From the NCBI GenBank assembly GCA_030608005.1, contig JAUWIX010000006.1:1-53243 (forward strand): a stretch of 53,243 nucleotides of DNA, written 5' to 3'. Made by a program: the position numbers and the translations under genes. Each line of letters opens with the position of its first letter. Position 1 is the stretch's first letter. The notes beneath the pieces were generated by a model that was not told the origin of the DNA, did not search any database, and worked only from the letters and a program-made list of their open reading frames with translations. Origin of the DNA: Dehalococcoidia bacterium (GTDB lineage: Bacteria > Chloroflexota > Dehalococcoidia > Dehalococcoidales > BS750m-G39). Below are positions 17,109 through 32,230 of this stretch, one piece after another.

Positions 17109-17320
17109 CTAGTTCAGATAGATTGGTGATACAGATTATCATGTTTCGTTTTTCTGCGGCATTGACCCCATCCCCCTGACCCCCTTCCCCTAGAAGGGGA
17201 AGGGGGAAGTAGTTTTAAGAGGGGGCTTCGCCCCCTCTTTTTCATTCCTCCCCCTCCCTTGGTAAGGGAGGGGGACAAAGGGGGAGGGTTGTAAAATATT
17301 AAGGAGGTGAGGTAGATAAA
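17109..17320. repeat. Dispersed modular palindromic element, copy L3
   Basis: Left module ctagttcagatagattggtgatacagattatcatgtttcg shared with 27297; hairpin AGAGGGGGC-TTC-GCCCCCTCT (17218-17238); right module gggggagggttgtaaaatattaaggaggtgaggtagataaa shared with 27560 and, inverted, with 31995. Confidence 0.85.
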
Positions 17321-21350: not shown

Positions 21351-21417
21351 TATTAGTAGGAAATACTAATTGCTGGGGTATAATAAAAACCAGCTAAAGG
21401 AGGAGGTAAGAGGTAAA

Positions 21418-22263
21418 ATGAAGGTAGTTGGTAAGATACTCGCTTTTTTGGTAATTATAGCTCTAATTGTGGTGCCGCTGGCGGCTTGTGGTGGAGCGCC
21501 AGGAGCATCAGGTTCACCGGGACCAATGGGAGCGCAGGGACCGCAGGGAGAGCCAGGTCCAATGGGACCGCCGGGCTCAGAGGGTGACTGGTCTTTCCCC
21601 GATAGTGCGGTGACCTCATCTAAGATAGCCAGTAACTCAGTGACCACGGCTAAAATCCGAGATGGCACGATAATAGATGAGGACATCGACGACGATGCTG
21701 CCATTGCGTGGTCAAAGATGGCAGCACTTCAGTCGGCTCATATATTAGTTGGGAGTGCTGGCGTGGCTACAGATGTCGCCGTTAGTGGGGATATTAGTCT
21801 AGCCAGCGACGGCACAATGACAATTGCCAATGATGCCGTGACCACGGCTAAGATATTCGATAACACCATCACTGCTGCCGACATAGCCACCAGTGCTGTG
21901 ACCACGAATGAAATCCTCAACGGAACAATCCTTAGGGAGGATATAGCTAACAATGCCGTGGGCTCACAGCAGATCGGGAGTGGCGCAGTGGAGTCGATTG
22001 ATATAGCTACCGGCGCCGTGACATATGCTAAGCTATCAAGCGGTTCCATAGACTCTAGAGCATCCACAGCGAGTGACGGCACTATAATCTCCCACAGCCT
22101 AGCCGCCTCGCCAACCCTGGTTGTAGCCACCGGAAGCGTTGCTGGAGAAATAGTGTCGGTCACAGCGATAACCCCCACCACCTTCACGATAGCGATTAAA
22201 AAGGCTGATGGCACTACTGCGGGCACAACCCAGACTATCTACTGGATAGCTATTAAAAAGTAA
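21418..22263 (+). CDS. Collagen-like lipoprotein with tail-fibre-like AVTTAKI repeats
   Basis: Lipobox VPLAAC, about ten GXY triplets, pseudo-repeats (AVTTAKIFDNTITAADIATSAVTTNEI...). RBS aaaggaggagg before ATG 21418. Confidence 0.85.
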   Translation: MKVVGKILAFLVIIALIVVPLAACGGAPGASGSPGPMGAQGPQGEPGPMGPPGSEGDWSFPDSAVTSSKIASNSVTTAKIRDGTIIDEDIDDDAAIAWSKMAALQSAHILVGSAGVATDVAVSGDISLASDGTMTIANDAVTTAKIFDNTITAADIATSAVTTNEILNGTILREDIANNAVGSQQIGSGAVESIDIATGAVTYAKLSSGSIDSRASTASDGTIISHSLAASPTLVVATGSVAGEIVSVTAITPTTFTIAIKKADGTTAGTTQTIYWIAIKK

Positions 22264-22303
22264 CCGATAGCGGGTTAGCGGCGACAGGTCAGGTTTGTTC
22301 TTT

Positions 22304-22360
22304 GTCAGCCCAGATAAGGGGTTGACAAATGGCAAAATAGTGATATAGTGTTTAGCGTAG
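22304..22360 (+). promoter_or_regulatory. Promoter cassette copy 2 (before collagen-like lipoprotein 2)
   Basis: gtcagcccagataaggggTTGACAaatggcaaaatagtgaTATAGTgtttagcgtag; -35 22322-22327, -10 22344-22349. Confidence 0.75.
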
Positions 22361-22517
22361 CTAGAAGAGTTGATAGCTATGATGGAATACAAGGTGTTGC
22401 GAGTTTGAAAGCGGAAGGAAAGGACGGAGCAAAACCTTGAAAGAAGGGGGTGATATAGAGGGAAAAAAGCGAGCAGATAAGAGCAACCGGTATCTTGAGA
22501 AGTGTTAAGGAGGTAAA

Positions 22518-23102
22518 ATGAAGAAAGCAGGCAAGATAATTGCCTTTTTGATAGTTATAGCGTTGATTGTGGTGCCGCTGGCGGCTTGTGCTGGACCACC
22601 AGGAGCGTCAGGTTCACCGGGACCAATGGGAGCACAGGGACCGGCAGGACCGCCGGGAGCACAGGGACCACCGGGCTCGGAGGGAATACAGGGACCAGTG
22701 GGACCAAGAGGATTTCCCGGTGAAGATGGTGAAGACGGTGACCTAGGACCGGTAGCCCAGCTAACGGTTTGCATGGTCCCTGAAGAGGCACCGGCGTATT
22801 TACTTATACCCATCTGCGCCGTTCCATGGGAAGATGTTCCCCTGGTAATCCTGGGGGCTTGCTTCCCGCCGGATGCGCTTGTGTTCATAACCTACTGCGA
22901 CGAGAATATCTACTGGGAAGAAGAATATGCTAATGAGTGCGGCGCATTTTATATTGAAACATCTGTACAAGAGGACTTTGGTTATTGGGTGGACGATGTT
23001 ATGTCGGTAAGAGCCTGGGTTGACGATGGCGATGAGGAGTTTGACGAGGATGAAGACGAGCTGTGGGCTAACTGGCCGTTATACATCTATGGCGGGGATT
23101 AG
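22518..23102 (+). CDS. Collagen-like lipoprotein with acidic C-terminal domain
   Basis: Lipobox VPLAAC, about sixteen GXY triplets ([22 protein letters not shown]...), acidic tail; RBS aaggagg. Confidence 0.85.
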
Positions 23103-23353: not shown

Positions 23354-26347
23354 ATGAAAAGGAAAATATATAAGATAATGGGTGTGGCGCTGACCCTGGT
23401 GATGGTGCTGAGCCTGTTTGCGTTTGCGGCACCGGTGGCGGCTGACCCAGATGAGAACGAGTGGTCAAAGTTCAGCTACCCCGACGAGGGGTCTGGTGAC
23501 GACTGGTTCTACAACCCCGATATAGACTATGTGGGACCAATAGCCATGACTGTGGACGGCGAGGCGCTCTACTGCGCTGCCTATGATGGTAGTGAGTACC
23601 ATCTGTTCAAGTCGGAAGATGACGGTCGCACCTGGTCCAAGACCGACTACTACGCCGACCTGTATGATGACTACGGAGCAGACCAAATAGTTGATATAGC
23701 CTGCGACAGCGAGGATGCCGATGTCGTCTATGTAGCCGACGCCAACTATGTTTACTGGACTGAGGACGGCGGCGATAAGTGGACGGCAGTAGCCCCCGAA
23801 TCCTGGGTTATTGTGGGTGCACCTGCTGCTATCAACTCCCTTGATGTGGGCTACATCGGCGGCGACCCCTTCGTCTTCGTCAGCACCGGTAATGGAAGCT
23901 ACAACGGCAGTGTTTACTTCATAAATCAGGAGGATTACCTGGCGGGCTGGATTAACATGGATACCCAGTCCCCCTACTCCGGCTATGATGTCTATGCGGT
24001 AAATGTGGCCCCTGACTTTGAGGACAGCCACAAGATATTCGCTGTCATTACTGCTGCTACGCCGCGAACCCTGATTGTGACCAACACCGGCACCGAGGGA
24101 GCGTGGTCGCAGTTTGGCGGCGACTTCTACCTTGTTACCGGCCCACCGTCTAGCAGTCCTATTAAGATTGAGGCTGCCTCTGACATCTGCTTCCCCGGTG
24201 ACTTTGACGACGACGAACTGCTTGTCGGTGTCTCGGGTGCAATTGATGGTACGGGTAGCGTCTACCGGGTGATAGAGGATATAGCTTATGCCTACCGCCT
24301 GGGCAACTATGATAGTACTGTTGACGTTGATATCATCAGCCTGGACATGACGGGCGATGTTGGGGCTACCCTGCTGCTGGCTGGTGCCCAAGACTACAAC
24401 GCTGATATTGATGACTCGGTTGATGTATTCTACAGCACCGATGACGGCGAGGGCTGGGATGCAGCTGGCAAGCTGCCAACGGGCGATAACGGTATGGCTT
24501 ATGTGCTGATGGCTGAGGACTTCGCCGACTCAGGCATTGCCTGGGCGGCAACCTCTGGCGATGAATGCGCAGTATCATACACCATTGATGGTGGAGACCT
24601 GTGGAACCAGATTTCGCTGATTGACACCAATATGGACGGCGAGATACTGTCCTTCTCCTTCTACCCGGACTATGAGGACAGCGGCAAGCTGTTCATGGTG
24701 ACCAACGAAGATTATGGTGACGAAAGCCTGTGGCGGTATGACGGCGAATACTGGGAGCGGGTGGCTCTAGATAATGCGGCGGTCGGTGATGCCCTCCGCT
24801 GGGTAGAGGTATCGCCGGAGATAGGCAACGACGAGACCGTTTACCTTACCAATTGGCCTATGGGTGGTAGTCCAGACATATACCGCTCCACCGATGAGGG
24901 ACAGAGCTGGGATGACCTGCGCTGTCAACCTAATGACTTCTACGGTGGAATAGTAATAGACGAGGACACCGTTCTGGTCGGCGGCAGTGGTGAAGTCTTC
25001 TTGACTGACGACCACGGCAACCGGGTGTGGGACACCATAGGCGCCGATATTGATGGCGACATCTACTGGTTTGCCCGCTACGGCGACAATGTCCTATGTG
25101 CCAGCTTAGACGGTGAGGTAGCCCTGTCTGAGGACCTGGGCGAGAGCTGGGAGGAGCTGGGCGACGGCAGCGTCATTTCTACTGGTGGTTGGGATGATAT
25201 GACCTATGTCGCCTTTGACACCGAGTATGACGAGAACAGCTTTGTCTACGCTGCCTGCGCCGATAGCATATACCGCTTTGAGGTTGGTGAGTCCGACAAC
25301 TGGAAGGACATTGATGATGGTGTAACAGTAGGAGGGTCGCTCTCAGGCATAGCCACTGCTGATGGCTGTCTCTACGTCTCAGATAAAGACGCTGGGGCTG
25401 GCATGTGGCGCTCGGTTGACCCAACGGCAAGCAGTCCGCTGTTTGAGCAGGTAGACTTTGAACTTGGTGCCGGCGCCGAGCTATGGTGGCTGAAGACGAC
25501 CAGCGGGAGCAATGTCCTGTATGCTCTTGACTCGACCAGCTTCCCATTCGATAACACGGAGATAATATGGACCTATGAGGATGCTCTGGTAGGACCGGTA
25601 GTGCTGGATTCGCCGGCTGATGGCGAAGGCGTAGACAGAACAAACAAGCTAACCCTTGCCTGGGAAGGGCTGGATGACGCCGATGACTATGAGGTAAAGT
25701 GCTACGCCGACGAGGACTTCAGGGGTGCCTATAGAGTGTGGAACGCCGATATTGACGATGACGAGCCACTATTGGTTCTGACTGAGGGTGATGGCATAGA
25801 ACCGGGCACTGCCTACTGGTGGAAGGTGAGAGTAGCCGAAGGAGAGCCATTAGTCAGCAAGTGGTCAGTGGTGTGGTCAGCTACTACGGCAATGGGTGCG
25901 GCTCAGTGGAACCCGTTCAGTGGACCGGTCAATGAGTATCCATGGATGGGTGCAACCAATGTTCCGCTGGCACCGACCTTCGCCTGGAATGTGGCTGACT
26001 GGGCTTCTGGCTATGAGTTCGAGCTGGCTGACAACGATGCCTTCAGCGATGCCTTCACCAAGACGCTAACTACCACTGTCTATCAGTATGAGACAGACCT
26101 TGCTTACTTCACTACCTACTACTGGAAGGTGAGAGCAGTTAGTGCGACAGGCACGAGCAACTGGGCAACCGGTGTGTTCACCACTATGGAGAGGCCGGCA
26201 GAAATAATTGCGCCACCTCCACCGGTGCAGATACCACCAACGCCAGCACCGATAACCCCGGCCTGGATATGGGCGATAGTTGTTATTGGTGCAGTTCTAG
26301 TGGTGGCGGTGATTGTCCTGATAGTCATGACCAGGCGAGTACCCTGA
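23354..26347 (+). CDS. Giant secreted BNR/beta-propeller-like protein with FN3-like repeats and C-terminal TM anchor (paralog 2, very acidic)
   Basis: Signal peptide, STDDGEGW/STDEGQSW repeats, TYYWKVRAVSATGTSNWATGVFTT, APPPPVQIPPTPAPITP linker plus TM. Confidence 0.85.
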   Translation: MKRKIYKIMGVALTLVMVLSLFAFAAPVAADPDENEWSKFSYPDEGSGDDWFYNPDIDYVGPIAMTVDGEALYCAAYDGSEYHLFKSEDDGRTWSKTDYYADLYDDYGADQIVDIACDSEDADVVYVADANYVYWTEDGGDKWTAVAPESWVIVGAPAAINSLDVGYIGGDPFVFVSTGNGSYNGSVYFINQEDYLAGWINMDTQSPYSGYDVYAVNVAPDFEDSHKIFAVITAATPRTLIVTNTGTEGAWSQFGGDFYLVTGPPSSSPIKIEAASDICFPGDFDDDELLVGVSGAIDGTGSVYRVIEDIAYAYRLGNYDSTVDVDIISLDMTGDVGATLLLAGAQDYNADIDDSVDVFYSTDDGEGWDAAGKLPTGDNGMAYVLMAEDFADSGIAWAATSGDECAVSYTIDGGDLWNQISLIDTNMDGEILSFSFYPDYEDSGKLFMVTNEDYGDESLWRYDGEYWERVALDNAAVGDALRWVEVSPEIGNDETVYLTNWPMGGSPDIYRSTDEGQSWDDLRCQPNDFYGGIVIDEDTVLVGGSGEVFLTDDHGNRVWDTIGADIDGDIYWFARYGDNVLCASLDGEVALSEDLGESWEELGDGSVISTGGWDDMTYVAFDTEYDENSFVYAACADSIYRFEVGESDNWKDIDDGVTVGGSLSGIATADGCLYVSDKDAGAGMWRSVDPTASSPLFEQVDFELGAGAELWWLKTTSGSNVLYALDSTSFPFDNTEIIWTYEDALVGPVVLDSPADGEGVDRTNKLTLAWEGLDDADDYEVKCYADEDFRGAYRVWNADIDDDEPLLVLTEGDGIEPGTAYWWKVRVAEGEPLVSKWSVVWSATTAMGAAQWNPFSGPVNEYPWMGATNVPLAPTFAWNVADWASGYEFELADNDAFSDAFTKTLTTTVYQYETDLAYFTTYYWKVRAVSATGTSNWATGVFTTMERPAEIIAPPPPVQIPPTPAPITPAWIWAIVVIGAVLVVAVIVLIVMTRRVP

Positions 26348-26395
26348 TTAAAACCTGGTTCGGGCTAAAGGGATAATACCTTAGCCGGATACCTC

Positions 26396-26430
26396 GGAGC
26401 CCCCCGCAGAGCGGGGGGCTCCTCTTTTTT
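26396..26430 (+). terminator. Intrinsic terminator of BNR paralog 2 (copy A of duplicated unit)
   Basis: GGAGCCCCCCGC-AGA-GCGGGGGGCTCC then ctctttttt. Confidence 0.95.
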
Positions 26431-26527
26431 TAGAGATTGCTTACCAAAGTCACCAAGATTTGACTATATACCCTTATCTGCTATATAGTTTTATGTACTA
26501 AGGAGAATAAACTAACATTAACTTATA

Positions 26528-26773
26528 ATGCCTCTAGATATACCTATATATTTTACCAGACATGCCAGAAATAGGATGCGCTGGCGTGGCATATCTGAGG
26601 CAGATGTAAAGCTCTGTTTAGCAAATTCAGAGCAAGCAAAAACAAGAAGACTGGGAAAGATTAATGCTTGGCGAAAGTTCGGTGATAGATTTTTAAGGGT
26701 TACCTATCGCAGGGAAAGTAAACGGCTGGTAATTATTACCGCTGTGATGAAAAGGAGGTTAAGCGGGAACTGA
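26528..26773 (+). CDS. DUF4258 family protein, candidate toxin of a two-gene module
   Basis: FTRHARNRMRWRGISEADVKLCL...GDRFLRVTYRRESKRLVIITAVMKRR. Confidence 0.8.
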   Translation: MPLDIPIYFTRHARNRMRWRGISEADVKLCLANSEQAKTRRLGKINAWRKFGDRFLRVTYRRESKRLVIITAVMKRRLSGN

Positions 26774-26982
26774 TGAAGATAGAGTATGACCGTGAAGCTG
26801 ATGCGTTATATATACAATTGCGTGAAGTAGTGGTAGAAGATAACCTAGATATTGAGGAAGGGGTCACAGTAGATTTAGACGCCAGCGGTCACATTGTGGG
26901 AATCGAAATTCTAGATGCCAGCACCCGGATGAGCACTCAAGAGCTAAGTAAGGTAGCCATCGAAAACCTGCTCCCCGTATAA
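26773..26982 (+). CDS. DUF2283 family protein, candidate antitoxin
   Basis: MKIEYDREADALYIQLRE...VDLDASGHIVGIEILDAS; TGATG overlap with the upstream gene. Confidence 0.88.
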   Translation: MKIEYDREADALYIQLREVVVEDNLDIEEGVTVDLDASGHIVGIEILDASTRMSTQELSKVAIENLLPV

Positions 26983-27027
26983 AAACCAGATTCTAGCTTG
27001 AAGGATAATACCTTAGCCGGATACCTT

Positions 27028-27062
27028 GGAGCCCCCCGCAGAGCGGGGGGCTCCCTCTTTTT
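27028..27062 (+). terminator. Intrinsic terminator, copy B of duplicated unit
   Basis: GGAGCCCCCCGC-AGA-GCGGGGGGCTCC then ctcttttt; same hairpin as 26396. Confidence 0.95.
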
Positions 27063-27074
27063 AATCCCTTTACC

Positions 27075-27215
27075 AAACAACCCCTCACCCTTCAGGTTTT
27101 TATTAGGTAACCCTCCCCCTTTATGCACCCTAAAAAATCCTTGATTTTTCAGGGAACCCGCTTAATCCCCCTCCCTTGATAAGGGAGGGGGAAGGTTGGA
27201 GGGGCTACGCCCATG
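27075..27215. repeat. Dispersed modular palindromic element, copy L5 (degenerate)
   Basis: ccctccccctttatgcaccc... and ccccctcccttgataagggaggggg. Confidence 0.6.
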
Positions 27216-27604: not shown

Positions 27605-30505
27605 ATGGCAAAGGTAAAATTTGCTCTGGGTCTGCTTCTGCTACTGGGGCTGCTGGGCTTAACCTTCCCCGTTTCCGCCGAGCCAGATATAGCGGAATGG
27701 TCTGAGGTCAAGAGCCCCACCGATGGCAAGGCGGGGGACTGGGTGCTGGCTCTAGGCTCAGATGTCCAGCACTTGAGTATGGCTATTGACGGCACCTTAT
27801 ATGCTTACAACTTTGATGGCACAACACATCACCTGATGAAGTCCACAGATGGGGGGTGCACCTGGGAACAGACCGACTACGATGGGGGTGCCATAGCTGA
27901 TATTGCCGGCTCCAGGATTGATGCCGAGACTATCTACCTGACCGATGGCAGCCATGTTTATAAGTCTGATGATGGTGGCGATAGCTTTGATAAAGTAGGC
28001 TATGGCAGTTTTCCCGCTCTTGATGCCAATGAATCGGTCGCCTGCCTTGATGTCGGCTATAATGGCAATGATGACCCCTTTGTATTAATAGGCACTGCTG
28101 ATAAAGACAACTTTGGCGGTGTCTATTGCATAGCGGAAGCAGATTTTGGGGCTAGGTGGGCTGACTTAAAGGTGGGCAGCTATGACGTCTACTCTATAGC
28201 CTGCTCCCCTGACTTCGCCCAAGATTACCGAGTAATGGCTTTAGTTACTGACGAAACTCACACCTACATTATCAACAATTATGGTGTCCTTGGTGACTGG
28301 TCTTACCCCGTTGAGCTGGTTGAGAATAATGCCAGCAGTTTTGCCGTTAGTGCTGCCTCCAGGATTTGTTTCCCATCCAACTTTGGCGAAATTTATGAGT
28401 TTTTTGTCGGTGTCGTAGCTGTCGGCAATGGTGATGTCTACCGAGTGACCGAAGAGGATGCTTATGACCTTGGTGTGGATGCTGATATTATTAGCCTTGA
28501 CCTGATTGGTGAGATTGGCGATACCCGGCTACTGGCTGGTGGAACAGCGGGCAAGGTATGGTATAGCACCGACGATGGGGAGAGTTGGGATTCAAGCCAA
28601 AAAGCTCCATCTGGTGATGGCTTGACCTATGTGGTCATGGCGGCTGATTTTGCCAATAGCAGTATAGCATACGCCGCCACCAGTAGCACCGAGAGCGCCT
28701 TCTCAATAAGCAGGGATGGCGGCGTTACCTGGAACCAGACCAGCCTAATTGATACCAAAATCAGCGACATTGTTGACCTGGCTCCATCCCCCAGCTATAG
28801 CCAGGATAACACTCTGTTTATGCTCACCGAGCATACTGACGGGGAGCACAGCCTGTGGCGCAGCCTCAATGGTGGAACAAGCTGGGAAAGGGTCTATACT
28901 AGCGCCCTGTCCGATGTAGAGCAGATTGACCGAGTTGCACTTTCCCCACAATATGATAGTGACAACCAGGTAATGTTCATCGCTGGCAGTAGTAACGGAA
29001 GTTCGGCAATATGGAAGTCAGATGATAACGGTCAAAACTTCAAGCGCCGAATTGCCCCTTTCCCCATTGACGCCTGGACGGTGGTTGATGATACCAGCCT
29101 GTTTATCGGCAGCCATGATGGCAGTAGTGGGCTGGTCTACCGCACCAACAACAGCGGTCGGAGCTACTCTAAGGGGGCAGTCGCTGGCAGCCAGTCATTA
29201 AAATCCATCGCCTTATCGCCCGACTATGATGAGGATGAGACTATTCTGGTAGGCAACAAAGATGGCTGGGTCTATTGGTCCGAAGATAATGGTGCTTCAT
29301 TTGAGCCGTTACCGCTGGATGCCACCTCAAAACCACTGACTGGCAGTGTAACCGTTGCCTTTGACCCGGAATACAGCAGTAATAACACCGTCTATGCTGC
29401 CAGCGACACCGCAGGTGAGGGCATTTACCGCTTTATCATCGGCAAGAGTGATGCCTGGGAAAGCATAGACAGTCCCGACGAGGGCATGATTGGTCAAATG
29501 ATAGTGTCAGCGGAGGGAACATTATATGCCGCCAACTTCAAGGCTGACGGCGGTATGGAGCGCTGCCTTAACCCAACATATTCACTAGGACCCACATTTG
29601 AAGCGGTAACCAAAGGACTGGATGATGGGGTTACCTTAATCAGATTATGGCTGCATGACAATAGGCTGTGGTCGATTGATACCACTAATGTTAAGCTGAT
29701 GACCTATACCGATAGCCTGACCCAGCCTGTCGCCCTCACCTCACCTCTCAATGAGGCGCCGGGCGTAGGCACAATTATCGATAACACTGTTAGAAAAATA
29801 AGCCTTGATTGGGAGACATCGAAGGGTGCCACCGAGTATAAATGGCAACTCAACTATGATACCAACTTCTCCAGCGTTCCCGCTGACTTTGAGGGTGATA
29901 CTGAAGCTAGCTCAGCCCGACTGCCAGACCTTGAGCCAGCCACCACCTACTACTGGCGGGTGAGAGCCACCGAGCCGGTATTAAGCCCCTGGTCAGCTAA
30001 GTGGTCATTTACTACCAGCCTTGGCACCGAGGTCTCTGCCCCCGAGCTAGATAGTCCCAAAGCTGGTGCCAGCGGGATGCCAGTAAAACCGATATTTCAG
30101 TGGAGCGCCGTAGCCGGGGCAGATAGCTATGAGCTAGTGGTGTCTACCGAGGCTAATCTTGGCAATCCCACCATCCTAAAGACCGGTGCCTATGCCTTGC
30201 CCACCACCGCCTGGCAATGTAACATAGCTCTCGACTACAATACCGCCTACTACTGGAAGGTAAGGGCTATCAGCTCTGATACTTGCAGTGCCTGGAGTGC
30301 TGTTAGTGCCTTCACTATCGAGCCACCACCATCGCCCCAGTCAACGCCTCCACTAACGCCACCCCAACCACCTTCCCCAGCCACCCCCGACTGGGTAAAT
30401 TGGCTAATGCCGCTGGGTGGTGTCCTGCTCCTGACTTTCCTCGTGACCATGATAGCAATGCTAATCACTATGATAATACTGGTAATAAAGGTATCGAGGC
30501 TCTAA
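27605..30505 (+). CDS. Giant secreted BNR/beta-propeller-like protein with FN3-like repeats and C-terminal TM anchor (paralog 3)
   Basis: Signal peptide MAKVKFALGLLLLLGLLGLTFPVSA; YSTDDGESWD, ALSPDYDEDETILVGNKDGWVYWSEDNGASF; Pro-rich linker plus TM. Confidence 0.85.
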   Translation: MAKVKFALGLLLLLGLLGLTFPVSAEPDIAEWSEVKSPTDGKAGDWVLALGSDVQHLSMAIDGTLYAYNFDGTTHHLMKSTDGGCTWEQTDYDGGAIADIAGSRIDAETIYLTDGSHVYKSDDGGDSFDKVGYGSFPALDANESVACLDVGYNGNDDPFVLIGTADKDNFGGVYCIAEADFGARWADLKVGSYDVYSIACSPDFAQDYRVMALVTDETHTYIINNYGVLGDWSYPVELVENNASSFAVSAASRICFPSNFGEIYEFFVGVVAVGNGDVYRVTEEDAYDLGVDADIISLDLIGEIGDTRLLAGGTAGKVWYSTDDGESWDSSQKAPSGDGLTYVVMAADFANSSIAYAATSSTESAFSISRDGGVTWNQTSLIDTKISDIVDLAPSPSYSQDNTLFMLTEHTDGEHSLWRSLNGGTSWERVYTSALSDVEQIDRVALSPQYDSDNQVMFIAGSSNGSSAIWKSDDNGQNFKRRIAPFPIDAWTVVDDTSLFIGSHDGSSGLVYRTNNSGRSYSKGAVAGSQSLKSIALSPDYDEDETILVGNKDGWVYWSEDNGASFEPLPLDATSKPLTGSVTVAFDPEYSSNNTVYAASDTAGEGIYRFIIGKSDAWESIDSPDEGMIGQMIVSAEGTLYAANFKADGGMERCLNPTYSLGPTFEAVTKGLDDGVTLIRLWLHDNRLWSIDTTNVKLMTYTDSLTQPVALTSPLNEAPGVGTIIDNTVRKISLDWETSKGATEYKWQLNYDTNFSSVPADFEGDTEASSARLPDLEPATTYYWRVRATEPVLSPWSAKWSFTTSLGTEVSAPELDSPKAGASGMPVKPIFQWSAVAGADSYELVVSTEANLGNPTILKTGAYALPTTAWQCNIALDYNTAYYWKVRAISSDTCSAWSAVSAFTIEPPPSPQSTPPLTPPQPPSPATPDWVNWLMPLGGVLLLTFLVTMIAMLITMIILVIKVSRL

Positions 30506-31994: not shown

Positions 31995-32230
31995 ACCTCA
32001 CCCCCTTAATATTTCACAACCCTCCCCCTTTGTCCCCCTCCCTTGGTAAGGGAGGGGGAATAGTTATATAAGAGAGGCTTCGCCTCTCTTTAACTCTCTT
32101 ATACTCTTGGGGCATCTGAAAGGGGCGTCGGCCCCAAATACATTATAGGGAGTTTTAGAGGGGGCGAATCCCCCTCTTTTTTATTCCTCCCCCCTCTCCT
32201 GGACGGAGAGGGGGATTAAGGGGGTGAGGT
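31995..32230. mobile_element. MITE-like element, copy L7, with perfect 16-bp terminal inverted repeats
   Basis: ACCTCACCCCCTTAAT (31995-32010) and ATTAAGGGGGTGAGGT (32215-32230); inner hairpins gagaggcttcgcctctc, ggggcgtcggcccc, gagggggcgaatccccctc. Confidence 0.6.

What the first reader, a model, noticed from the sequence alone, without database searches (positions are those of the whole stretch)
26350..27062. DUF4258-DUF2283 toxin-antitoxin-like pair bracketed by near-identical direct repeats containing a terminator
Copy A (about 26350-26431) and copy B (about 26981-27062) share aggataataccttagccggataccT/CggagccccccgcagagcggggggctccC/TcTTTTT, with one substitution before the hairpin, plus a degenerate match upstream. 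The pair lies exactly between. DUF4258/DUF2283 neighbours have, to my recollection, been proposed as TA-like. The geometry suggests insertion by recombination at a terminator, or a cassette that carries its own copy, insulating it transcriptionally.
Basis: partly seen in the sequence, partly recalled or inferred. Interest (0 to 1): 0.7.

Follow-up and report, generated by a model that had tools for sequence, protein, structure and literature searches.

The report
Toxin-antitoxin cassette between duplicated gene ends
A half-kilobase pair of genes that looks like a toxin and its antidote sits between two copies of the end of a neighbouring surface-protein gene, and the same arrangement recurs beside other genes in related bacteria, which suggests that such pairs jump into gene ends while duplicating them, without carrying any enzyme of their own for moving.

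Summary
Units A (26342-26430) and B (26974-27062) are 84% identical over 89 nt, occur only here in the genome, and bracket a DUF4258-DUF2283 pair. The unit is not a generic terminator. It is the order-wide conserved 3' UTR and terminator of the S-layer-like gene upstream. Three relatives carry the same gene order with one unit and no pair (empty sites).

DUF4258 is predicted to have a RelE-type fold. DUF2283 follows it, overlapping ATGA. Toxicity is untested. Unit B has a 5' flank unlike any same-family relative and closest to other families. The two copies have exchanged sequence.

The pattern is general. Among 116 DUF4258 loci in this phylum, 19 are tightly bracketed by a direct repeat, against 5 of 667 shifted controls (p=1e-12). 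Most repeats are partial duplications of the adjacent gene's end (recG, radA, etfA, ligA, polX and others). The material between the copies is 513-688 nt, with no recombinase and no shared terminal motif. Similar cassettes occupy different genes.

This works like the "insertion with long target duplication" described for restriction-modification genes. I found no description of it for toxin-antitoxin modules. Best reading: an integrase-free mobile TA cassette. Insertion chemistry and toxicity are inferred, not shown.

The parts
23354..26347 (+). S-layer-like gene (Sortilin-Vps10/BNR and Ig-like domains; C-terminal anchor ending VLIVMTRRVP*), the gene whose 3' end is duplicated
   Evidence: ORF, Pfam; same gene in the same synteny in relatives
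26342..26447 (+). Unit A: native 3' UTR and intrinsic terminator (hairpin 26396-26422) with the tail TTTAGAGATTGCTTACCAA
   Evidence: order-wide conserved element; A-type 5' flank shared with G041
26460..26489 (+). candidate promoter of the pair, TTGACT-18-TATAGT
   Evidence: consensus match only
26528..26773 (+). DUF4258 gene, 81 aa, predicted RelE/BECR-fold toxin; His12 invariant among 35 relatives
   Evidence: Pfam; alignment; AlphaFold2; Foldseek
26773..26982 (+). DUF2283 gene, 69 aa, presumed antitoxin; start overlaps the toxin stop (ATGA)
   Evidence: conserved order DUF4258 then DUF2283; model
26974..27062 (+). Unit B: second copy of the S-layer 3' UTR/terminator (hairpin 27028-27054), 5' flank of foreign type
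27605..30505 (+). next gene (second BNR/Sortilin-Vps10 protein), which directly follows the single unit at the empty sites

Best explanation
The pair is a type II toxin-antitoxin module (RelE-fold DUF4258 toxin first, DUF2283 antitoxin second) that forms a cassette of about 0.54 kb with its own promoter. It was inserted just behind the S-layer-like gene. Unit A is the native gene end; unit B is a second copy of that gene end that came or arose with the insertion. This is one case of a general mode of movement: DUF4258 modules (and at least one HicA module) insert at the ends of host genes and are left bracketed by an intact gene end and an orphan copy of it. No recombinase is carried. I propose that entry into a new gene makes a long target duplication. 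After that the duplicated gene ends act as homology arms: RecA-type recombination between them can excise the module as a circle with one gene end, and the circle can re-enter the same gene in another genome by single crossover. Toxin addiction selects against loss. Shown: anatomy, empty sites, the statistical excess of bracketing, different targets for similar modules. Probable from short sequences: a foreign-type unit B, exchange between copies. Inferred: toxicity, the circle, the chemistry of first insertion.
For: Repeats and pair. Empty sites in G001, G005, G008 with the same synteny. Tight bracketing 19/116 DUF4258 loci against 5/667 shifted controls, Fisher p=1e-12; with 16 of 114 the p is 2e-10. 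Duplicated segments map to ends of recG, radA, etfA, ligA, PPDK-like, HDAC-like, enolase-like and thioesterase-like genes at the 3' end, and polX (twice) and an ornithine-cyclodeaminase-like gene at the 5' end; the ffh 5' end is duplicated around a further module with looser spacing. Material between copies is 513-688 nt with no recombinase and no conserved terminal motif. Modules 87.5% identical in DNA (G181:C41, G390:C70) sit at different genes; related modules sit at the same gene in different families (polX, comM; ilvD-ilvB also shared). At recG, of 21 located gene ends among relatives, only G080 has a second copy, and it lies behind an orphan antitoxin of the same family. Unit B 5' flank: 20/22 identical between G000 and G041, 15-16/22 to G040 and G066 (other families), 6-12 identical positions to same-family relatives; the G000_A hairpin matches G041_B 28/29 but G041_A only 18/32, so the copies recombined. 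RelE-type fold.
Against: Only about one sixth of DUF4258 loci show tight bracketing; decay could explain the rest but was not tested. Unit-type assignment rests on about 22-26 nt per segment. G000 and G041 share one insertion and G041:C29 may be a misbinned or transferred contig. Foldseek E-values for DUF4258 are only 0.013 and worse although probability is about 1 and TM about 0.6. DUF2283 has no recognisable DNA-binding or known antitoxin fold. No excision product or toxicity was observed.
Confidence: 0.66

Rival explanations
1. Pure insertion with long target duplication: each module enters a new site by an unknown break-repair event that duplicates 30-300 nt of target; no gene-end homology arms are carried between genomes and the copies differ only through later decay.
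For: polX copies in G013:C177 are 100% identical over 56 nt; similar modules are found at unrelated genes; described for R-M genes (cited in PMC1643837, PMC3154945, PMC3874152).
Against: Unit B has a foreign-type 5' flank; in G080 the last 46 nt of the orphan recG end match another genome's recG end at 43/46, more than its own in-use end does, so gene ends appear to have been exchanged between genomes.
Confidence: 0.22
2. Tandem duplication of the S-layer gene 3' region, followed by replacement of the second gene body by the pair, so the flanking repeats are leftovers of a gene duplication.
For: Two BNR genes lie in tandem here, and the unit is multicopy in some relatives (G079).
Against: Empty-site relatives have the same two BNR genes with one unit; no remnant of an S-layer gene was seen between A and B; the same geometry occurs at housekeeping genes.
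Confidence: 0.06
3. The pair is not a TA module; DUF4258-DUF2283 is some other small accessory pair that happens to sit at gene ends.
For: No paper held describes DUF4258 or DUF2283 function (PMC11980606: undescribed; no paper with DUF2283); no NCBIfam or PADLOC hit.
Against: RelE-type fold, conserved toxin-then-partner order with overlap, MqsA-like antitoxin partners for another subfamily of the same toxin family; PMC11980606 lists PF14076 among BECR toxin families.
Confidence: 0.15
4. Chance or assembly artefact.
For: Most genomes are fragmented assemblies.
Against: Copies differ by up to 22%, recur in independent assemblies, and exceed shifted controls about 20-fold.
Confidence: 0.03

Closest known systems
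Insertion with long target duplication of restriction-modification genes (Nobusato et al. 2000; Furuta et al. 2010, both known here through citing papers PMC1643837, PMC3154945, PMC3874152)
   Same: An addiction-type module with no mobility enzyme is bracketed by long direct repeats, on the order of 100 bp, of target sequence; empty sites exist in relatives.
   Different: Here the cargo is a half-kilobase TA module; repeats are gene ends that keep the host gene intact; some copies look foreign, pointing to exchange between genomes; the hosts are not Helicobacter.
RelE/ParE (BECR-fold) type II toxin-antitoxin modules, family PF_DUF4258 (PMC11980606)
   Same: Small toxin with RelE-type fold in a two-gene module.
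   Different: Toxin comes first and the partner is DUF2283, a beta-sheet protein with no DNA-binding domain seen in the model; the paper's table gives antitoxin-first order for PF_DUF4258 and lists fusions to MqsA-type antitoxins.
Integrative elements and islands that insert in a gene end and carry a replacement end (general knowledge)
   Same: The host gene is kept whole and a remnant of the old end lies on the far side.
   Different: Those carry an integrase and are kilobases long; here there is no integrase and no attachment-site core was seen.

Membership tests
Type II toxin-antitoxin module, RelE/BECR superfamily | toxin with BECR fold | tested here: met
   AlphaFold2 pLDDT 89; top Foldseek hits RelE1, Cami1, HP0894, RelE2, ParE2, HigB2, prob about 0.9-1, TM about 0.5-0.6, E 0.013-0.09; PF14076 listed as BECR in PMC11980606
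Type II toxin-antitoxin module, RelE/BECR superfamily | two-gene operon with conserved partner | tested here: met
   DUF4258 followed by DUF2283 on the same strand at most loci of the order; MqsA-like partner for another subfamily
Type II toxin-antitoxin module, RelE/BECR superfamily | toxin inhibits growth, partner neutralises it | not testable with these tools
   needs expression in a laboratory strain
Insertion with long target duplication | long direct repeats of target sequence flank the insert | tested here: met
   84-89 nt here; 33-241 nt at the other tightly bracketed loci
Insertion with long target duplication | empty allele with a single copy in relatives | tested here: met
   G001, G005, G008 at this locus; 20 of 21 located recG ends single
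Transposon or integron cassette | terminal inverted repeats, recombinase or attC-like site | tested here: not met
   no common edge motif on inspection and no third gene within 513-688 nt

The most novel reading that the evidence does not exclude
DUF4258 and perhaps other small TA modules form a class of integrase-free mobile elements that spread between species by using duplicated ends of conserved host genes as homology arms, with addiction replacing a dedicated mobility enzyme.
Probability: 0.4. Interest if true: 0.78.

Novelty: new variant of a known kind. Interest (0 to 1): 0.62.

Why it matters
TA modules are known to move, but how solitary half-kilobase modules without any recombinase enter chromosomes is unclear; a 2013 review (PMC3874152) notes that TA mobility is often ascribed to carriage by known elements and credits long target duplications only to R-M systems. 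A reproducible footprint (intact gene end, module, orphan gene end) makes the question testable by sequence: the orphan copy records the site, the direction and possibly the donor. It also gives a context for DUF4258-DUF2283, a widespread pair with no described function.

Tried and rejected
Generic repeated terminator: rejected, only two copies in the genome and elsewhere it follows the S-layer-like gene. Known RNA family: only a tRNA in the window. A stable upstream hairpin in the unit: mean z only -0.77 over 32 units, so not claimed; the terminator hairpin itself is strongly covarying (379 of 383 cells paired). Plasmid relatives of the toxin: none. Close relatives in the genome collection: five loci, one being the G041 contig. 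Solved-structure sequence search: nothing meaningful. PADLOC and NCBIfam: nothing. HicA as a negative control family: not clean, 7 of 29 have a repeat across the module and L248 shows a leuD 5'-end duplication, so the effect is probably not specific to DUF4258. Which recG end of G047 is foreign: inconclusive.

Full report
What is there. The window is contig C4 of a 1.12-Mb, 87% complete genome. An 89-nt direct repeat (84% identical) lies at 26342-26430 and 26974-27062. Each copy holds a 12-bp GC hairpin and a T run, and folds well below its shuffles. Between them are DUF4258 (26528-26773, PF14076, 6e-9) and DUF2283 (26773-26982, PF10049, 1.5e-17), overlapping by ATGA, with a promoter-like TTGACT-18-TATAGT at 26460-26489. 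The repeat is found nowhere else in the genome.

What the repeat is. A covariance model from nine units found the same element in many genomes of the order. In 24 of 28 inspected loci it closely follows the stop codon of a gene whose product ends in an anchor of the type ...YIWAIIGIGAVLVIAVIVLIVRTRRVA*. So the unit is the 3' UTR and terminator of the S-layer-like gene, not a generic terminator. The terminator hairpin covaries (379 of 383 cells paired, two or more standard pair types at every position). An upstream mini-hairpin is only weakly supported.

Empty sites. In G001, G005 and G008 (same family) the S-layer-like gene is followed by one unit and then directly by the second BNR gene, with no pair; rho lies upstream where the contig reaches it (G001, G005), and collagen-like lipoprotein genes lie between in G005 and G008. 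G041 contig C29 holds the same pair and both units at about 94-95% identity, but G041's dnaK is only 81% identical to the window's, so this contig is transferred or misbinned; it still serves as a second haplotype.

Which copy is which. The A flanks agree between G000 and G041 (20/24), as do the B flanks (20/22), while A and B differ (15/24, 11/24). The B flank is nearest to G040 and G066 of other families (15-16 of 22), not to same-family relatives (6-12 identical positions). The G041_A core is like G001 (24/26), and the G000_A hairpin is like G041_B (28/29) rather than G041_A (18/32). Hence A is native, B has a foreign-type 5' part, and the copies have recombined in the G000 line. These are short stretches, so the assignment is probable, not certain.

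The pattern is general. DUF4258 is followed by DUF2283 at most loci of the order; another subfamily has an MqsA-like partner. Looking at flanks, 28 of 116 usable DUF4258 loci in order and phylum samples have a repeat of 30 nt or more across the module, against 45 of 590 random positions, of which the printed examples fall largely in low-complexity genes or dispersed repeats. With tight geometry (left copy ending within 200 nt of the toxin domain, right copy starting just behind the partner) the count is 19 of 116 against 5 of 667 shifted pseudo-cassettes, p=1e-12. Of the 19, G000 and G041 are one event, G112 is a dispersed repeat and G201 is short; dropping three such cases gives p=2e-10. The repeats are mostly partial duplications of the adjacent gene: 3' ends of recG (G047:C16), radA (G047:C27), etfA (G013:C134), ligA (G390), HDAC-like (G181:C41), PPDK-like (G201), enolase-like (G252), thioesterase-like (G129) and a methylase-like gene (G346); 5' ends of polX (G013:C177, G104) and an ornithine-cyclodeaminase-like gene (G410). 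The ffh 5' end is duplicated around G144:C33 with looser spacing. Gene names are my reading of the translated ends, not family searches. One copy stays part of the intact gene and the other is an orphan fragment.

Mobility. The stretch between copies is 513-688 nt, enough for the two genes only, without shared edge motifs on inspection. Modules up to 87.5% identical in DNA sit at different genes, while related ones sit at the same gene in different families: polX, comM. At recG, 20 of 21 located ends are single; the exception, G080, has an orphan MqsA-like antitoxin followed by a recG remnant whose last 46 nt match the in-use recG end of G047 at 43/46, while over 63 nt it matches G080's own end at 82.5%. 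So gene ends appear to have been exchanged along with modules.

The proteins. The DUF4258 model (pLDDT 89) matches RelE1, Cami1, HP0894, RelE2, ParE2 and HigB2 best, and His12 is invariant in 35 sequences. The DUF2283 model (pLDDT 84) is a small beta sheet without a confident solved match. Literature: PF_DUF4258 is listed as a BECR family with nothing known (PMC11980606); no held paper mentions DUF2283.

Mechanism and comparison. [quoted passage not shown]). The original papers were not held, so that comparison rests on citing texts. The cases here share the footprint. The added proposal, that duplicated gene ends then serve as homology arms for excision and re-entry in other genomes, fits the foreign-type unit B, the exchange between A and B, and the recG case, but no excised form was seen. 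HicA loci show at least one similar case (leuD, L248), so the mode may be common to small TA modules.

Limits. The control is positional, not a matched set of non-TA genes at gene ends. Toxicity is untested.

Noticed in passing
window 26342-26430 and units in L085-L109: A structured 3' UTR and terminator is conserved behind S-layer-like genes across this order (hits in 67 of 151 genomes at E <= 0.01, some weak or hairpin only), with a sequence motif resembling TTGANGGATAACACC upstream of a covarying hairpin; Rfam reports nothing there.
   Followed up: partly
L012 (G041:C29), also SOJS01000075.1: This contig is about 94-95% identical to the window although the rest of that genome looks like another family (dnaK 81%); misbinned or recently transferred.
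   Followed up: partly
recG 3' end in G047:C16 and G080:C28; HicA near recG in G060, G034, G059, G000:C6: The region behind recG looks like a hotspot for toxin-antitoxin modules in this order.
   Followed up: partly
window 17251-17273, 27168-27190, 32035-32057 and weaker copies elsewhere in the window: Dispersed palindromic intergenic repeat CCCCTCCCTTGATAAGGGAGGGG, never matched in shuffles; REP-like.
   Followed up: no
window 21370-23102: Two collagen-like lipoprotein genes with partly repeated sequence; the number of such genes varies between relatives at this locus.
   Followed up: no
L248 (G113:C68): A HicA locus is bracketed by a duplicated start of leuD, suggesting the same insertion mode for another TA family.
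   Followed up: partly
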